Below the pieces are notes generated by a model. The model saw only the letters and a program-made list of their open reading frames with translations, ran no database searches and was not told the DNA's origin. Position numbers and translations under genes: made by a program. From Gemmatimonadota bacterium (GTDB taxonomy: Bacteria; Gemmatimonadota; Gemmatimonadetes; Gemmatimonadales; GWC2-71-9), in the NCBI GenBank assembly GCA_022566515.1, contig JADFIT010000012.1, forward strand, positions 1 through 39,164: a DNA stretch of 39,164 nt, given 5' to 3'. Shown here one piece after another: positions 17,807 through 24,835 of this stretch. Each line of letters starts with the position of its first letter. Positions within the stretch are counted from its first letter, which is position 1.

Positions 17807-18326
17807 GCCCGCTGGGAAGGTGCCCATCTCGCTGATCGTAAACGGCGAGCATACCGAAATCGCGTTTGCACCACACAAAACGCTGCTGGAGGTACTCCGG
17901 GAAGACCTCGGCCTAACCGGTACGAAGCACGGCTGCGAACTCGGCGAATGCGGCACGTGCGCCGTCCTGATGGACGGACAGCCGGTGCTGTCGTGTTTGG
18001 TGCTCGGTGTCGCTTGCTCCGGACGGTCGATAAGCACCGTCGAGGGCATGGCTGATGGGCCTACTCTTCATCCGCTGCAGAAGGCGTTCGCCGACCTGGG
18101 TGCCGCCCAGTGCGGCTATTGTACGCCGGGATTGCTGCTAACCGCGGAAGCGCTGCTGCTCGACAATCCCAGTCCCACTCGCCAAGCGATCAAGGAAGCA
18201 CTTGCGGGCAATCTCTGTCGCTGCACCGGATACATAAAGATCTACGAGGCTGTCGAGCTCGCCGCCGCATGGATGCGGGGTGAGTCCGCCGAGCCGGCAC
18301 GTGAGATACTCTATGGCCAGCGGTAA
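17787..18326 (+). CDS. Two-[2Fe-2S] subunit of a molybdenum hydroxylase (HcrC-like)
   Basis: The small electron-transfer subunit, 179 aa. The N-terminal plant-type [2Fe-2S] domain carries C50, C55, C58 and C70 (CELGECGTC...LSC). The C-terminal four-helix domain carries C109, C112, C144 and C146 (CGYC...CRC), the standard pair of clusters in the xanthine oxidase family. TTG 17787 is chosen because GAGGAG lies 7 nt before it, though this overlaps the YggX-like gene by 20 nt. GTG 17820 is the alternative and would begin at VPISLIVNG. The end overlaps the large subunit by 14 nt. It belongs to the same enzyme as the two following genes. Confidence 0.9.
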   Translation: MENSPNRPAGKVPISLIVNGEHTEIAFAPHKTLLEVLREDLGLTGTKHGCELGECGTCAVLMDGQPVLSCLVLGVACSGRSISTVEGMADGPTLHPLQKAFADLGAAQCGYCTPGLLLTAEALLLDNPSPTRQAIKEALAGNLCRCTGYIKIYEAVELAAAWMRGESAEPAREILYGQR

Positions 18327-20763
18327 CGGAGATGCGCTGCGCGTCATCGGCCGGCCGCACCGCAAGGTCGATGCGGTGGACAAGGTCACCGGGCAGACCA
18401 AATTCGCGGACGACCTGTATCTCCCGCAGATGCTGTATTGCAAGATCCTCCGAAGCCCACACCCACACGCCCGGATCACTAGCATCGATACCTCGACGGC
18501 AAAGGAACTCCCCGGCGTCAAGGGCGTGCTGGTTGGGCGCGATATCCCGATTGCATTCGGCATTCTCCCGGTCAGCCAAGACGAGCACGCCCTCGCGCCG
18601 GATAAGGTGAGGTTCATCGGCGATCCAGTTGCCGCCGTTGCCGCGATCTCAGAAGAGATCGCGACAGAGACCCTCGATCGCATCCACGTCGAGTACGAAC
18701 AGCTCGACGCGATCGCCTCGATCGAGCAGGCTTTAGCAAATCCCGAGCCGCGCATTCACGACTACGGCGACAGTGGAAACCTGCACAAGCTCGTCAGCCT
18801 CGAGTTTGGCGATGTGGAAGAGGGATTCGAACAAGCATATCTGGTGCGCGAGGATCTCTTCTTCTACGGTGGGAGTACACACCTACCAATGGAGCAGCAC
18901 GCAGCGTTGGCTAGTTACTCCGCAGATCACAAGTTGACGCTCTGGAGTTCCACGCAAACCCCTCACTATGTGCAACGTGCATTGGCCAAGGTACTGGAGA
19001 TGCCGGCCTCTCGCATCCGGGTCATCGCGTGTCCCAACGGAGGCGGTTTCGGGGGGAAGAGTGATCCCTTCAGCCATGAGATAGTGGTCGCCAAATTCGC
19101 CATGATGACGGGACGGCCCGTCAAGATCACATTGACCCGGGAAGAGGTCTTCTACTGTCATCGGGGTCGCCACCCCACGCTCATGTGGGCCAAGACCGGT
19201 GTCACCAAGGACGGACACATCACGGCGATGCATTTCCGGACCGCGCTCGATGGCGGGGGCTACGGTTCCTACGGTGTTGCCAGCACGTATTACACTGGTG
19301 CACTGCAAACCGTCACCTATCAAGTCGATCGCTACAAGTTCCAGGGAATGCGGGCGTTCACCAACAAGCCACCATGCGGACCCAAGCGCGGGCACGGCAC
19401 ACCACAACCGCGCTTCGCCCTAGAAGTGCAGATGGACAAGCTAGCCGAGCAGTTGGGCATGGACCCCGCAGACATGCGGCTCAGACATCTCGTTCCTGAG
19501 AACTCCCTCACCGCAAATTATTTGCGCGTGGGGTCGATCGGCTTGGGCGCGTGCATAGAGAAGGTGGTGGACGGTTCCCAGTGGAGAGACAGGTTCCGGA
19601 AGCTTCCTGAGGGACGCGGCGTCGGCCTCGCCTGTTCGAGCTATCTCAGCGGCGCGGGCCTGCCCATCTACTGGAACAACATGCCCCACTCGGGGGTGCA
19701 GCTGAAATGCGACCGCGGCGGCGGCATCACCGTGTTCTGCGGCTCCACGGACATCGGCCAAGGATCGGACTCCATTCTGGCGTATATCGTGGCCGAGGTT
19801 CTCGGCGTGGATCCCTTCGAGATACGCATCGTTACCGCGGACACCGACCTCACACCCGTCGATCTCGGCAGTTACGCGAGTCGCGTCACGCTGATGTCCG
19901 GAAACGCCGCGCTGCAGGCTGCGGAGCGCGCGCGTGACATGATCGCACCCGAGGTGGCGCAGAAGCTCGACGTTCCCCGCGACCGGCTCGTGTTCGCCGA
20001 CTCCCGTGTGTTCGACAGTGAAGACCCCGAACGAGGAATGACCTTCGCCGAGGCGGTACAGGCCGCCGAAGGCGCACTCGGCACCATCGGCACGGTGGGG
20101 TCGTATACGCCTCCGAAGAGTCCTGGCCGGTATCGCGGAGCAGGAGTGGGCCCGTCGCCGGCGTACTCCTATAGCGCCGCCGTGGCCGAGGTCGAAGTGG
20201 ACATCGATTCAGGCATCGTTCGGGTTCTCAAAATCTGGATTGGACACGACATCGGCCGGTGCATCAACCCAACCACCGTGATGGGCCAGGTCGAGGGAAG
20301 CATCTACATGGGCCTCGGTGAGGCGCTCATGGAAGACATGGAATACCGGGAAAACTTCCACGTGGTGCACAAGATCCCGAGCATGCTCGAGTACAAGAGC
20401 CCCACGACGCTCGACATGTGCGAGGTGGAGACCTACTTGATCAGCGACCCGGATCCTAACGGTCCGTTTGGCGCGAAAGAGGCAGGACAGGGTCCCCTGT
20501 TGCCGGTGGCACCTGCGGTGGCCAACGCCGTGTACGATGCCGTGGGCGTGCGGATCGACGAAGTGCCGATCATGCCGGAGAAGGTGCGTAAGGCACTCAA
20601 GCAAAAAGCCAGCGGCAAGGAAGCCCGTTACGGACCGACGTCCTTTCCCGACATCCCGTGGCCGGAGCCAATTCACGTACCCACGCCCTGGGAAGGCGGC
20701 GACGGGAAGGCGTTGCAGCACGAAGAAACCACGACAGGCCCACCGCCCGAGAGGCAACATTAG
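18313..20763 (+). CDS. Molybdopterin-binding large subunit, 4-hydroxybenzoyl-CoA reductase-like (HcrA-like)
   Basis: The 816-aa catalytic subunit of a xanthine oxidase-family enzyme, binding the molybdenum cofactor. The cofactor motif GGGFGGK is at 243-249, and the catalytic glutamate is E723 in GPFGAKEAGQG. Several segments follow the HcrA pattern I recall from 4-hydroxybenzoyl-CoA reductase: YTGAL, PPCGPKRGHGT, STDIGQGSDS, DLGSYASRVT and DPNGPFGAKEA. That enzyme reductively removes the phenolic hydroxyl from 4-hydroxybenzoyl-CoA, giving benzoyl-CoA. ATG 18313 is used. The last 50 residues are a Pro/Glu-rich extension not expected in the family. No CoA ligase or benzoyl-CoA pathway gene lies nearby, so the true substrate is open; a related aromatic or other hydroxylase remains possible. 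Confidence 0.88.
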   Translation: MASGNGDALRVIGRPHRKVDAVDKVTGQTKFADDLYLPQMLYCKILRSPHPHARITSIDTSTAKELPGVKGVLVGRDIPIAFGILPVSQDEHALAPDKVRFIGDPVAAVAAISEEIATETLDRIHVEYEQLDAIASIEQALANPEPRIHDYGDSGNLHKLVSLEFGDVEEGFEQAYLVREDLFFYGGSTHLPMEQHAALASYSADHKLTLWSSTQTPHYVQRALAKVLEMPASRIRVIACPNGGGFGGKSDPFSHEIVVAKFAMMTGRPVKITLTREEVFYCHRGRHPTLMWAKTGVTKDGHITAMHFRTALDGGGYGSYGVASTYYTGALQTVTYQVDRYKFQGMRAFTNKPPCGPKRGHGTPQPRFALEVQMDKLAEQLGMDPADMRLRHLVPENSLTANYLRVGSIGLGACIEKVVDGSQWRDRFRKLPEGRGVGLACSSYLSGAGLPIYWNNMPHSGVQLKCDRGGGITVFCGSTDIGQGSDSILAYIVAEVLGVDPFEIRIVTADTDLTPVDLGSYASRVTLMSGNAALQAAERARDMIAPEVAQKLDVPRDRLVFADSRVFDSEDPERGMTFAEAVQAAEGALGTIGTVGSYTPPKSPGRYRGAGVGPSPAYSYSAAVAEVEVDIDSGIVRVLKIWIGHDIGRCINPTTVMGQVEGSIYMGLGEALMEDMEYRENFHVVHKIPSMLEYKSPTTLDMCEVETYLISDPDPNGPFGAKEAGQGPLLPVAPAVANAVYDAVGVRIDEVPIMPEKVRKALKQKASGKEARYGPTSFPDIPWPEPIHVPTPWEGGDGKALQHEETTTGPPPERQH

Positions 20764-21759
20764 ATGCTGCGGCTTCCTACCTTCACCTACCTCCAGCCCA
20801 CGTCCATCGACGAAGCGCTGAAGATGAAGCAGGACGCAGGGCCCGACGGCATGTACGTGGCCGGCGGCACCGACCTGTATCCCAACATGAAGCGTCGGCA
20901 CCAAGAGCCGAAGACGGTCATCTCGCTCAGCGGTCTCGACGACCTGCACCACGTGACAATCAACCCTGCTGAAGGCACGGCAATCGGTGCCGGCACGACG
21001 TTGAGTGAAATCGAAACCCACGGGGCGCTCGCGCAGCGCTACCCTGTCGTCACGCAGGCCACGAAGCTCATCGCGACACCCCTGTTGCGCAACATGGGAA
21101 CCATCGGCGGCAATCTCTGCTTGGACACGCGCTGCAACTACTACAACCAGTCGTACGAGTGGCGAAAGTCGATCGACTTCTGCATGAAGAAGGACGGTGA
21201 GATCTGTTGGGTCGCACCGAGCAGCCCCCGGTGCTGGGCCGTATCGTCTACCGATCTAGCCCCGGTGATGGTGGCTCTCGACGCGCAGTTCACGCTCATC
21301 GGCACCAACGGTGAGCGGCAGGTTCCAGCCGGCCGCTTCTACAACGACGACGGGATCGAGTACCTCACGAAGCGACCGGAGGAGATCCTCGCGGATGTGC
21401 GGCTCCCGGCGGCGAACGGCTGGGACGCCACGTACTGGAAGTTGCGCCGCCGGGGCTCGTTCGATTTCCCCGTCTTGGGGGTGGCCGCCTGGGTGGAGTG
21501 GGATGGCGACACCGTGCGGGATGCGCGTGTCGTCCTCGGCGGCGTCGCGAGTTTCCCGAAACTCATAGCCGCTGCGAGTGAAGCGATCGTCGGCACCGAT
21601 CTCAACGACGACGCCATTGCCTCAGCCGCACAGGCGGCGTTCAAGCCTGCGAAGCCGATGGACAACACCGACTTCGGGCTGGCGTGGCGGAAGGAGATGA
21701 CGCGCAACTACGTGAAGGGCGCCCTGGAGGAACTGCGTAACCGACACCGAAAGGCGTGA
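20764..21759 (+). CDS. FAD subunit with [4Fe-4S] loop, 4-hydroxybenzoyl-CoA reductase-like (HcrB-like)
   Basis: The 331-aa flavin subunit of the same complex. FAD-binding motifs GGTDLYPN (34-41) and GTIGGNLC (112-119) are present. Between them and the C-terminal domain lies an extra cysteine loop: C119, C124, C140, C148 and C157, with the sequence DTRCNYYNQS..W. In ordinary xanthine dehydrogenases this loop is absent. In 4-hydroxybenzoyl-CoA reductase it binds a [4Fe-4S] cluster that feeds low-potential electrons toward the molybdenum site, and the spacing here (C-x15-C-x7-C-x8-C) agrees with what I recall for the Thauera beta subunit. The ATG follows the large-subunit stop without a gap, so translation is coupled. 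It is the best evidence for the reductase type. Confidence 0.88.
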   Translation: MLRLPTFTYLQPTSIDEALKMKQDAGPDGMYVAGGTDLYPNMKRRHQEPKTVISLSGLDDLHHVTINPAEGTAIGAGTTLSEIETHGALAQRYPVVTQATKLIATPLLRNMGTIGGNLCLDTRCNYYNQSYEWRKSIDFCMKKDGEICWVAPSSPRCWAVSSTDLAPVMVALDAQFTLIGTNGERQVPAGRFYNDDGIEYLTKRPEEILADVRLPAANGWDATYWKLRRRGSFDFPVLGVAAWVEWDGDTVRDARVVLGGVASFPKLIAAASEAIVGTDLNDDAIASAAQAAFKPAKPMDNTDFGLAWRKEMTRNYVKGALEELRNRHRKA

Positions 21760-21801: not shown

Positions 21802-22359
21802 TCAGGTCGCCAACGCCTCCAGTTCTTTCAGTGCCTCTTCCAGCACCTCCGCAATCCGCTTTCGTTTTTCCACGTCGCCGTGAAGCTGCCACGAGCTACG
21901 GTACACCTGCGCCACCAGCTTCCCGACGGCCCGGTTGACGTCCGGCATCGAATCGCCGACGAAGCGATCGATCATCTCGTCGATGCGATCGAAGATCTCC
22001 TCCACGCTCGACTTGTTCTCCTCGAGAAACTCACGGCCGGCATCCGTGATGGAGTAGACCTTTTTCCCGTCCCGATCTTCACTCTGAACCAGCCCCTCGT
22101 CCTCGAGCCATTGCAGCGTGGGATAGACCGTGCCCGGAGACGGCGTGTAGCAGCCGCGCGTCTTGTCCTCCAGCGCCTTCATCACTTCATAGCCGTGCAT
22201 CGGCTTGTCTTTGATGAGTCTCAGGATCACGTACTTCATGTCGCCTGATCCGAACCACTGGCGACCACGGCGGTGTCTCCCCCGCCCCCGCCCCCGCCGC
22301 CGGCCCATGCCCCAATCGCAGGGGTCGAATCCGAACCAGAAGTCTCCTCGGTAATTCAT
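21802..22359 (-). CDS. PadR-family transcriptional regulator
   Basis: A 185-aa PadR regulator. The winged helix-turn-helix (about residues 40-115) has MKYVILRLIKDKPMHGYEVM, SPGTVYPTLQWLEDEGLV and KKVYSITDAGREFL, all family hallmarks, followed by a helical C-terminal dimerisation region (to LKELEALAT). The first 40 residues are unusual, with aromatic Gly/Asp at the start and an Arg/Gly tract (GRRRGRGRGRHRRGR) before the domain, perhaps adding non-specific DNA contacts. The ATG has a good ribosome site (AGGAGG, 6 nt away). Four palindromes lie 26-75 bp upstream, so it most likely represses itself. It converges on the HcrB-like gene; whether it controls that cluster is not shown by the sequence. 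Confidence 0.92.
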   Translation of the reverse strand: MNYRGDFWFGFDPCDWGMGRRRGRGRGRHRRGRQWFGSGDMKYVILRLIKDKPMHGYEVMKALEDKTRGCYTPSPGTVYPTLQWLEDEGLVQSEDRDGKKVYSITDAGREFLEENKSSVEEIFDRIDEMIDRFVGDSMPDVNRAVGKLVAQVYRSSWQLHGDVEKRKRIAEVLEEALKELEALAT

Positions 22360-22384
22360 GCTAACCTCCTACTCTCTTGCTAGA

Positions 22385-22434
22385 CGATATATCGGCACGA
22401 TATATCTTCACGATATATCGAGTAAGATATATCG
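22385..22434. promoter_or_regulatory. Four-fold CGATATATCG operator array upstream of padR
   Basis: Four copies of the 10-bp palindrome CGATATATCG begin at 22385, 22398, 22411 and 22425, separated by 3, 3 and 4 bp. Copies 1 and 3 are perfect; copy 2 ends in T and copy 4 begins with A. The array lies 26-75 bp before the padR start, overlapping where a TATA-like -10 would be, as expected for an autorepressor site. Confidence 0.8.
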
Positions 22435-22435
22435 T

Positions 22436-22457
22436 ACGGCTTCCATGTGCAAGCCGT
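22436..22457. repeat. Inverted repeat next to the PadR operator array
   Basis: ACGGCTT (22436-22442) and AAGCCGT (22451-22457) form a 7-bp perfect inverted repeat with an 8-nt spacer, directly beyond the last CGATATATCG copy. It has no T-run on either side, so it is a possible second operator rather than a terminator. No gene lies in 22458-22493. Confidence 0.45.
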
Positions 22458-22493: not shown

Positions 22494-22521
22494 AAAAAAT
22501 GGGGTGACCCGCAGTCACCCC
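22494..22521 (-). terminator. Intrinsic terminator of the sigma/anti-sigma/PDZ operon
   Basis: GGGGTGAC (22501-22508) and GTCACCCC (22514-22521) form an 8-bp stem with a 5-nt loop. On the minus strand it is followed by a run of six T (22494-22499 complement). It lies 27 nt beyond the PDZ gene stop. Confidence 0.8.
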
Positions 22522-22548: not shown

Positions 22549-23673
22549 TTAGCTGATCCGGTGGAGCCGACGAGGCTTGACCAGCTCCAGGTGGGGCACG
22601 TGGCGGAGCTCGGCGTGCTCCAGCTCCAGATGGGGAGTCTCCAACAGCTCGATCTCGTCCAGCTCCAGGTGCGGCACCTCCAACTTCTGCTCTCGCCGCT
22701 CCCTGCGGCTCTCGAACCGGGACCAGTTGTTTTCCCGCTCGGGCACCACATACGAGACCGTCATGCGGTTCCGGTCGCGCATGATCTCGATATTGAGCGT
22801 CTCGCCCTCTTCGTAAGATCGGAGGATCCGCAACGCCCTCGACGGCGAGCGCGGCTCTCGGCCATCGATGCCCAGTATCACGTCGCCGGCCTGGAGATCC
22901 AATTCATCGTTGTCCGGCGGACTGATGACGAGCAGCCCTTCGGAAGTTCCGAAGTACCGGCCCAGGTCCTCATTGAGACGGACCAACTCGATATCGGCCC
23001 ACCTATCGCCCCACAGCGATAACACGGTGAAGCCCAGCCGGTTGCTATCGCCGAAGAAACGCAATTCCGGCCAACTCGGAACATTAATCCGCGGAGGTCT
23101 CACGGAATATGCTTGGAACAACGAGTCGCGGTCGAAATATGTTTGGAGCCAGGAATCGCGCTCGTCCAGCGTCACCACGGTGCTGTGCGTCTCACCGTCG
23201 CGTTGATATTCGATCGTGACCTCGTCACCGGGGTCCTTGTCTCCGATCAGGTCGATCAGCTTCTTGGCCGGTTCCGACTCGTCGGGATCGGCCTCCGGAT
23301 AGCGCCCCGCCAGACGCTCGCCGTCGAAGGAGATAATGATGTCTCCGTCGTGCAATCCCGCTTCCTCCGCGGCACTGCCCTCAGTCACGGACTGGAGGAG
23401 CGCGCCGATGCGGTCGGTTTCCGAATCAGCTTCCAATCGCACCAACACACCGAGCTGCGCCCGGTTGGTTGACCACGTGAGCACGCCTCCGAAAAAGCTG
23501 GTGGAGCCTCGCACGTCGCGAAGTTGTCGTTCGACGTCGCGCAACTGCTGCCGAAGCTCGCTCAGACGGCTCTCCAGCTCGCGGCGCTGTTCTCGCTCCT
23601 GCGCAGCCATCGGCGCGACACCAAGTCCAATTGCCATCGCCGCGATGGTCAGCAAAAATCTCGTCTTCTTCAT
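22549..23673 (-). CDS. Exported double-PDZ protein with C-terminal PHLEL repeats
   Basis: A 374-aa exported protein. ATG 23673 is chosen for its AGGAG site and the signal peptide that follows (MKKTRFLLTIAAMAIGLG..., ending MAAQ). A coiled coil (about 25-55, LESRLSELRQQLRDVERQLRD) precedes a first PDZ domain (about 70-165, GSAAEEAGLHDGDIIISFDG) and a second one (about 200-300, DLQAGDVILGIDGREP). The last 45 residues carry three 13-residue repeats beginning VPHLEL, TPHLEL and VPHLEL. There is no protease domain, so it is probably a scaffold or regulator in the periplasm. It is the third gene of an operon with an ECF sigma factor and a zinc anti-sigma factor, and a terminator follows. A sensor or effector role in that envelope-stress circuit is inferred. 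Confidence 0.85.
   Translation of the reverse strand: MKKTRFLLTIAAMAIGLGVAPMAAQEREQRRELESRLSELRQQLRDVERQLRDVRGSTSFFGGVLTWSTNRAQLGVLVRLEADSETDRIGALLQSVTEGSAAEEAGLHDGDIIISFDGERLAGRYPEADPDESEPAKKLIDLIGDKDPGDEVTIEYQRDGETHSTVVTLDERDSWLQTYFDRDSLFQAYSVRPPRINVPSWPELRFFGDSNRLGFTVLSLWGDRWADIELVRLNEDLGRYFGTSEGLLVISPPDNDELDLQAGDVILGIDGREPRSPSRALRILRSYEEGETLNIEIMRDRNRMTVSYVVPERENNWSRFESRRERREQKLEVPHLELDEIELLETPHLELEHAELRHVPHLELVKPRRLHRIS
22561..22677 (-). repeat. Three 39-bp coding repeats (13-residue PHLEL unit)
   Basis: Residues 333-345, 346-358 and 359-371 of the PDZ protein read VPHLELDEIELLE, TPHLELEHAELRH and VPHLELVKPRRLH. Each unit is 13 residues (39 bp), with PHLEL kept exactly. Period and Leu/Glu alternation suggest stacked short beta strands or a binding array. 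Confidence 0.8.
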
Positions 23674-23705
23674 TGCACTCAACTCCTGTTGCCACAGGCA
23701 ACCAG

Positions 23706-24293
23706 TCAAAATCCAATCAGTATCACGGGTCGGGCGTGAACGTTCACCAAGAGATCCATCAGGCCGACGCGCTCCTGCCACAGCACAATCACTCTCTCTC
23801 TCGACAGCCGCTGCACTCTGGCTTGCTCAAACCGCAGGTCCAACAGCTCCAGTCGATCCTCCACCGCCGCCACGGCAGCCGCCATCCGCCCGGTGAGCAC
23901 ACGGGTCTCCGGTCGCATAGTGCGAAGCGCTCGCTCCAGCAGCTGAGCTTCCGACACGAGTTCGGCGAGCGGATCCGGCTCCTGCGCCGCGGGCGTTACC
24001 AGATCCCCCAACCCGATCGCCAGCGCCACCGAGGCCGCCGCCGCCGCCGTCAACCATCCGCCAAAGCGTCGTCGCGTACGGGCACGCCGTGCCAGCACCT
24101 CATCGCGCACCACTGACCACCGGTCTCGGGGCGGCCTGAGGCTGGGGAGCGCCTTCAACGCCGCAACGCGCTGATGCAAAAGCTCGAGTTCGTTGCAGCA
24201 CTCATCACACTCGTCCAGGTGGCGCAGAGCCCCCTGCGAGCCCTGGCCATCCCGAATGGCCAGAAGCTCATCCATCGTGCAGTGAATCAGCAT
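23706..24293 (-). CDS. Zinc-finger anti-sigma factor, membrane-anchored
   Basis: A 195-aa protein with the ZAS signature H25-x3-C29-x2-C32 (HLDECDEC) in its cytoplasmic N-terminal part, one membrane segment (about 79-99) and a helical periplasmic domain (100-195) with coiled-coil character (RMAAAVAAVEDRLELLDL). It starts inside the sigma gene, overlapping it by 7 nt, after AGGCGG. The family holds an ECF sigma factor inactive until a signal or redox change releases it. The PDZ gene starts 32 nt later. The function is well supported by motif and context; the signal is unknown. Confidence 0.88.
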   Translation of the reverse strand: MLIHCTMDELLAIRDGQGSQGALRHLDECDECCNELELLHQRVAALKALPSLRPPRDRWSVVRDEVLARRARTRRRFGGWLTAAAAASVALAIGLGDLVTPAAQEPDPLAELVSEAQLLERALRTMRPETRVLTGRMAAAVAAVEDRLELLDLRFEQARVQRLSRERVIVLWQERVGLMDLLVNVHARPVILIGF

Positions 24294-24835
24294 ACCGCCT
24301 CCTCACCTAGCCATTTCCGAAGCCGTGCGTGTGCCCGCGACAGCTGAGATTTCGAAAAACTCACACTCTTTCCCATTAACTCAGCTATGTCCTCGTGCGT
24401 GTAACCCTCTACGTCATGCAACCACACCACAGCCCGCGCCGTGCTCGACAGACGTTGCATGACAGTCTCCAAGTCCATGCGAAGGCTCGCGTCACCCTGG
24501 CTCGGGGCCGGAGCCGCGTCCTCGAACAGCTCCTCGGTTTGCCGGTACTTTCCTCTACGGATCTTCATCAGCGCCTTACTGGCCGCTAACCGCTTGATCC
24601 AAGCCGTCAGGCTGCCGTCGCCCGAGCCCCGGAACGCTCCCATGCTCCGGCACACTTCCAGGAAGGTTTCCTGAAGCACGTCTTCGGCGTCCTCGGGTGA
24701 TGAGCAAATCCGCCGAGCCATGCTGTACACCATTCCCTCATAGGCCCGGTAGACATGCTCTAAAGCGTTGATATCACCAGCTTTAGCTCGCTGAATCGCT
24801 ATGTCGTCGATGGCAGCGATCACGGCGTTGGTCAT
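24287..24835 (-). CDS. ECF-type RNA polymerase sigma factor
   Basis: A 182-aa ECF sigma factor. Region 2 (about 20-90) contains MVYSMARRICSSPEDAEDVL and QETFLEVCRSMGAF, then LTAWIKRLAASKALMKIRR. Region 4 (about 125-178) contains LSSTARAVVWLHDVEGYTHEDIAELMG with the recognition helix SVSFSKSQLSRAHARLRKWL. It is the first gene of a three-gene operon with its anti-sigma factor and the PDZ protein, and it likely autoregulates the operon. No Shine-Dalgarno sequence precedes the ATG; a TATAGT lies 6 nt before it. Confidence 0.92.
   Translation of the reverse strand: MTNAVIAAIDDIAIQRAKAGDINALEHVYRAYEGMVYSMARRICSSPEDAEDVLQETFLEVCRSMGAFRGSGDGSLTAWIKRLAASKALMKIRRGKYRQTEELFEDAAPAPSQGDASLRMDLETVMQRLSSTARAVVWLHDVEGYTHEDIAELMGKSVSFSKSQLSRAHARLRKWLGEEAVC

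What the first reader, a model, noticed from the sequence alone, without database searches (positions are those of the whole stretch)
22385..22434. Four phased CGATATATCG palindromes before padR
The copies start 13, 13 and 14 bp apart, so adjacent sites do not sit on one face of the helix. That spacing is unusual for stacked dimers and suggests cooperative wrapping or multiple PadR dimers around the DNA. The regulator also has an N-terminal Arg/Gly tract that could add DNA contacts.
Basis: seen in the sequence. Interest (0 to 1): 0.6.

Follow-up and report, generated by a model that had tools for sequence, protein, structure and literature searches.

The report
PadR self-control operator array
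Four near-identical short DNA palindromes sit in front of a regulator gene in a Gemmatimonadota bacterium, and matching ones sit in front of the same gene across the phylum and almost nowhere else, so they are very probably the docking sites through which the regulator controls its own production.

Summary
Four copies of (C/A)GATATATC(G/T) start at 22385, 22398, 22411 and 22425 (steps 13, 13, 14); two are exact CGATATATCG, two differ by one base, and the core GATATATC is exact in all four. They lie 25-76 bp upstream of a padR gene on the minus strand. The gene is a single-copy Gemmatimonadota ortholog, found at E<1e-30 in 140 of 249 sampled genomes. All 47 close orthologs examined carry an array of such units before the start codon; 89 of 103 neighbour steps are 12 or 13 bp. 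In 39 orthologs from other families, 34 have at least one exact GATATATC upstream. The full 12-bp site occurs at 64 places in 102 related genomes; 60 are padR promoters (two by inference), and the other 4 are no more than a reversed-pattern control gives (7). In most close relatives a TTGAC -35 box abuts the first unit and a TATC(G/T)T -10-like hexamer lies in the second. Best reading: PadR binds the array and represses its own promoter by occlusion. Cooperative wrapping and DNA contacts by the Arg/Gly tail are possible but unshown. Multi-dimer PadR autorepression is already known (LmrR, cdPadR1); the motif and its 12-13 bp register were not found in the papers held.

The parts
21802..22359 (-). 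padR gene, 185 aa: disordered Arg/Gly-rich tail (about 1-32), winged helix (about 40-104), three C-terminal helices
   Evidence: PF03551 E=1.1e-21; AF2 model mean pLDDT 82; single-copy ortholog in 140 of 249 Gemmatimonadota genomes
22365..22370 (-). ribosome-binding site AGGAGG, 5 bp before the ATG
   Evidence: sequence
22384..22395 (.). operator unit nearest the gene, ACGATATATCGG
22397..22408 (.). operator unit, ACGATATATCTT
   Evidence: matches the family 12-mer AMGATATATCKT
22410..22421 (.). operator unit, ACGATATATCGA
22424..22435 (.). operator unit farthest from the gene, AAGATATATCGT
   Evidence: matches the family 12-mer AMGATATATCKT
22424..22429 (-). candidate -10 hexamer TATCTT inside the farthest unit
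   Evidence: inferred from relatives: TATCKT lies 18 nt (25) or 17 nt (2) from TTGAC in 27 of 47 close orthologs; same-genus G057 has TTGACC-17-TATCTT; no promoter passed the consensus scan in the window
22447..22452 (-). candidate -35 hexamer TTGCAC, 17 bp from the candidate -10; weak, 3 of 6 match to TTGACA
   Evidence: sequence; weak assignment
22501..22521 (-). intrinsic terminator of the upstream PDZ gene, separating its transcript from padR

Best explanation
The array is the autoregulatory operator of this PadR protein. Several PadR dimers occupy the GATATATC units, which are set 12-14 bp apart and so are staggered around the helix, and which overlap the padR core promoter, so RNA polymerase is excluded when PadR is abundant or free of its signal. 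Multiple sites would make the negative feedback steep. Shown: the array, its conservation with padR across the phylum, its near-exclusive location at padR promoters, and its overlap with promoter hexamers in most close relatives. Inferred: that PadR is the binding protein, that binding represses, that more than one dimer binds at once, and that a ligand or stress signal releases it. Not known: the signal, and any target besides padR.
For: All 47 close orthologs carry an array, 150 units in 5,640 bp against 1 in 23,500 bp of coding DNA; steps 13 bp (72), 12 bp (17), 14 bp (2) of 103. Two-unit pattern in 102 genomes: 34 genomes hit, reversed control zero; all 36 loci fetched from the two-unit searches have padR downstream. 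Full 12-mer: 60 of 64 places are padR promoters. A sequence profile of the array finds only this array in its own genome. Outside the family 34 of 39 orthologs have GATATATC upstream, shuffles mean 0.09; spacing peak 12 bp. TTGAC abuts unit 1 in 26 of 47 and a TATCKT hexamer lies 17-18 nt from TTGAC in 27 of 47. Own transcription unit: terminator upstream, convergent gene downstream, no constant neighbour. Precedents: LmrR autorepression with multiple dimers on its own promoter (PMC4534193; PMC5428041) and cdPadR1 (PMC5050560).
Against: No binding or expression data. Within one unit the half-sites are about 8 bp apart centre to centre, shorter than in the published PadR operators ATGT-N8-ACAT and TACT-N11-12-AGTA, so the dimer register is uncertain. 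In most close relatives unit 2 keeps only its right half and unit 3 is an imperfect palindrome (CGTWACATCKN), so not every unit need hold a symmetric dimer. The window's own promoter hexamers are weak.
Confidence: 0.85

Rival explanations
1. Cooperative wrapping (a stronger form of the best explanation): the dimers contact one another and form a continuous helical filament around the DNA, with the basic N-terminal tail laid in the AT-rich minor groove, in the manner of BldC on direct repeats.
For: Conserved 12-13 bp register in close relatives and a 12 bp peak in other families; basic disordered tail in every ortholog checked; BldC gives a precedent for head-to-tail multimers on repeats (PMC5859096).
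Against: Spacing tolerates 10-14 bp steps and skipped units of 24-26 bp; the two LmrR dimers on its operator are described as much less cooperative than QacR (PMC5428041); no structural evidence.
Confidence: 0.35
2. The dimers do not sit on single palindromes: each dimer spans half-sites of neighbouring units, and the apparent palindromes arise from overlapping sites.
For: The TATCKT half recurs as a direct repeat at 13 bp even where the left half is lost; half-site separation within a unit is shorter than in known PadR operators (PMC5050560, PMC5428041).
Against: The core of unit 1, GATATATC, is a perfect palindrome in 31 of 31 aligned promoters, and some orthologs in other families keep only one intact unit.
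Confidence: 0.25
3. Another DNA-binding protein, not PadR, reads the array and controls padR.
For: Binding by PadR has not been measured.
Against: The site is essentially absent elsewhere in the genomes and travels with padR through changing gene neighbourhoods, which fits self-binding best.
Confidence: 0.08
4. The repeats act as RNA in the 5' untranslated region rather than as DNA sites.
For: If the upstream promoter is the right one, some units would be transcribed in the window.
Against: In most close relatives unit 1 lies between the -35 and -10 hexamers, before the start of transcription; no Rfam match.
Confidence: 0.03

Closest known systems
LmrR / lmrR promoter (Lactococcus lactis, PadR-s2)
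   Same: PadR-family repressor; multiple dimers occupy its own promoter and give autorepression (PMC4534193, PMC5428041)
   Different: Operator is ATGT/ACAT inverted repeats; LmrR is short (PadR-s2) and also controls the lmrCD transporter; no regular 12-13 bp array of palindromes was seen in the passages read
cdPadR1 (Clostridium difficile)
   Same: Binds two inverted repeats in its own promoter with several shifted complexes; autoregulation proposed (PMC5050560)
   Different: Motif TACT-N11-12-AGTA, with 200 predicted sites in the genome; here the site is nearly private to padR
LstR and LltR (Listeria)
   Same: PadR repressors that mainly repress their own operons (PMC6624303)
   Different: Their operons carry effector genes; here padR stands alone and its neighbours vary
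Rv3488 (Mycobacterium tuberculosis)
   Same: Top structural match to the winged helix: 41% identity over 85 aligned columns, E=7.9e-06
   Different: The match covers only the winged-helix part of this longer protein; its operator was not compared here
BldC (Streptomyces, MerR-like)
   Same: Cooperative multimers on repeated sites; a possible model for wrapping (PMC5859096)
   Different: A different protein family (MerR-like); binds direct repeats, not palindromes; analogy only

Membership tests
PadR family (PF03551) | PadR winged-helix domain above Pfam cut-off | tested here: met
   77 bits against cut-off 27
PadR family (PF03551) | Winged helix followed by helical C-terminal dimerisation region | tested here: met
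   AF2 model: H40-51, H56-66, H75-87, wing strands 91-104, helices 116-134, 138-158, 163-184; structural matches to solved PadR proteins. Dimerisation itself not tested
PadR subfamily 1 | About 180 aa with a multi-helix C-terminal domain | tested here: inconclusive
   185 aa with three C-terminal helices fits the definition in PMC3506622, but about 35 aa of the length is the N-terminal tail and most of the best structural matches are short PadR proteins
Canonical PadR operator (ATGT-N8-ACAT) | ATGT/ACAT inverted repeat | tested here: not met
   Array consensus is AMGATATATCKT; it is a different motif
Autoregulated PadR repressors | Operator-like array in the regulator's own promoter | tested here: met
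   Array 25-76 bp before the padR start, overlapping promoter hexamers in most close relatives
Autoregulated PadR repressors | Regulator binds its promoter and represses it | not testable with these tools
   Needs gel shift, footprint and reporter assays
NCBIfam padR_acidobact (TIGR03433) | Score at or above curated cut-off | tested here: not met
   53.6 bits against cut-off 101.8

The most novel reading that the evidence does not exclude
A phylum-wide Gemmatimonadota PadR whose high-affinity sites are confined to its own promoter, where dimers assemble cooperatively as a helically staggered array at 12-13 bp steps with the basic tail in the minor groove: a private self-wrapping operator not described for PadR proteins.
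Probability: 0.25. Interest if true: 0.6.

Novelty: new variant of a known kind. Interest (0 to 1): 0.38.

Why it matters
It gives a bench-ready operator for a regulator conserved through a poorly studied phylum, and a natural set of orthologous promoters with 12-14 bp steps for testing how PadR dimers pack on DNA. The near absence of the site elsewhere raises a clear question: what does a conserved, single-copy regulator do if its strong sites are only in front of itself?

Tried and rejected
Regulon by exact motif: the other exact CGATATATCG sites in the genome lie inside ORFs; the one other 12-mer (contig C219) lies inside an ORF of 314 aa; a single near-site on C120 lies in a region between divergent genes and was not pursued. 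Non-padR 12-mer sites in relatives (G004, G023, G046) were read and show no array; G056 is a contig edge next to an SPFH-like gene that in its genus mate G036 is divergent from padR, so it was counted as a padR promoter. The SPFH-like gene was considered as a second target and rejected: its promoters carry a different dyad. A conserved operon partner was sought and not found. Known RNA element: none. Literature searches for the motif with PadR returned nothing relevant. The first array alignment was distorted by one out-of-register sequence and was remade.

Full report
Observation. Two are exact CGATATATCG and two differ by one base; GATATATC is exact in all four. Shuffled controls give 0.72 near-matches per window against 7 seen, 4 of them in these 50 bp. 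Genome-wide the exact 10-mer has only two other places, both single and inside ORFs, and paired cores occur only here.

Setting. The array lies 25-76 bp before the ATG of a 185-aa PadR gene on the minus strand, with an AGGAGG ribosome site between. Upstream on the same strand are an ECF sigma factor, a probable anti-sigma factor and a PDZ protein, closed by an intrinsic terminator at 22521-22501. Downstream a plus-strand gene converges. padR therefore appears to be its own transcription unit.

The protein. PF03551 at E=1.1e-21. The AF2 model has a confident winged helix and three C-terminal helices, with residues 1-32 below pLDDT 50. The best solved matches are PadR proteins, Rv3488 first. Every one of 30 close orthologs has 4-9 Arg or Lys in the 18 residues before the fold, but the long RG run is limited to a few lineages.

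Conservation. The gene is found once per genome at E<1e-30 in 140 of 249 Gemmatimonadota genomes; nearly all close named hits are Gemmatimonadota MAGs. In 47 close orthologs every promoter carries an array; a motif model finds 150 units in 5,640 bp upstream and 1 in 23,500 bp of coding sequence of the same genes, and steps are 13 bp (72), 12 bp (17) and 14 bp (2) of 103. That model was trained on these promoters, so tests that do not depend on it matter more. In 39 orthologs from other families, 34 have an exact GATATATC within 230 bp upstream (mono-nucleotide shuffles: mean 0.09) and 20 have two or more, with spacing peaking at 12 bp.

Specificity. A two-unit pattern in 102 genomes of the family hits 34 genomes, with no reversed-control match, and all 36 loci fetched from the two-unit searches have padR just downstream. 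The full 12-mer AMGATATATCKT has 64 places in those genomes; by my count 60 are at padR promoters, of which G046 (padR masked by N) and G056 (contig edge, judged by synteny with G036) are inferred. The 4 others do not exceed the reversed-pattern control of 7. A sequence profile of the array finds only this array in its own genome, and across the family its matches at E<0.01 fall at padR promoters, including G046; weaker matches were not all read.

Promoter. Aligned promoters give TTGAC-AMGATATATCKT-N6-ATATCKT-NN-CGTWACATCKN. TTGAC abuts unit 1 in 26 of 47, and a TATCKT hexamer follows TTGAC at 18 nt in 25 and 17 nt in 2. So unit 1 usually fills the -35/-10 spacer and unit 2 overlaps the -10. 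In the window's genus the arrangement is shifted: G057 has TTGACC-17-TATCTT with the -10 in the farthest unit, and the window has the weaker TTGCAC-17-TATCTT at the same place; no promoter passed the consensus scan, so the window's start site is unassigned.

Mechanism. Self-binding and repression by occlusion is the best-supported reading; binding itself is inferred. Known PadR proteins do this: LmrR puts multiple dimers on its own promoter (PMC4534193) and two dimers on one operator (PMC5428041); cdPadR1 gives several shifts on two inverted repeats of its own promoter (PMC5050560). At 10.5 bp per turn the 12-13 bp register would stagger neighbours by roughly 50-90 degrees. Whether dimers touch, or whether they span units, cannot be read from sequence: the half-site distance within a unit is shorter than in the published operators, and unit 2 often keeps only its right half.

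Function. No conserved partner gene was found: neighbours include sigma/anti-sigma/PDZ, DoxX-like, M14-peptidase-like, sensor-kinase-like and SPFH-like genes in different lineages. The names of the -like genes are my reading of the sequences, not tested by a family search. The signal and any second target remain open.

Verdict. Real, conserved, and mostly explained as a known kind of regulation with a new operator.

Noticed in passing
L044, L047, L049, L051, L052, L062 (upstream of the SPFH-like gene near padR): A different conserved dyad, about TATCAATATGATATCATATTGATA, precedes an SPFH-like gene that often sits beside padR; it may be the site of another regulator.
   Followed up: partly
window 22549-24835, minus strand: ECF sigma factor, probable anti-sigma factor and PDZ-protein genes in a row upstream of padR; the PDZ gene cluster and another upstream gene cluster recur near padR in several relatives.
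   Followed up: partly
window 18280-21759, plus strand: Genes that look like the large and FAD-binding subunits of a xanthine/CO-dehydrogenase-type enzyme, convergent with padR; both clusters recur downstream of padR in many relatives.
   Followed up: no
L195 (G046:C1:1823800-1827900): A padR-type promoter with array is followed by the first padR codons and then a run of N, so the gene is hidden in that genome rather than shown absent.
   Followed up: yes
L089 (Dehalococcoidia MAG), L091 and L092 (Bacillaceae): More distant PadR relatives also show GATATATC- or TATCG-like sequences upstream; not tested statistically.
   Followed up: no
L097 1501-1511 (G000:C120): A single AGATATATCGT site lies between two divergent genes, one of them hydrolase-like; the only non-array candidate site outside an evident gene in this genome at zero mismatches.
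   Followed up: no
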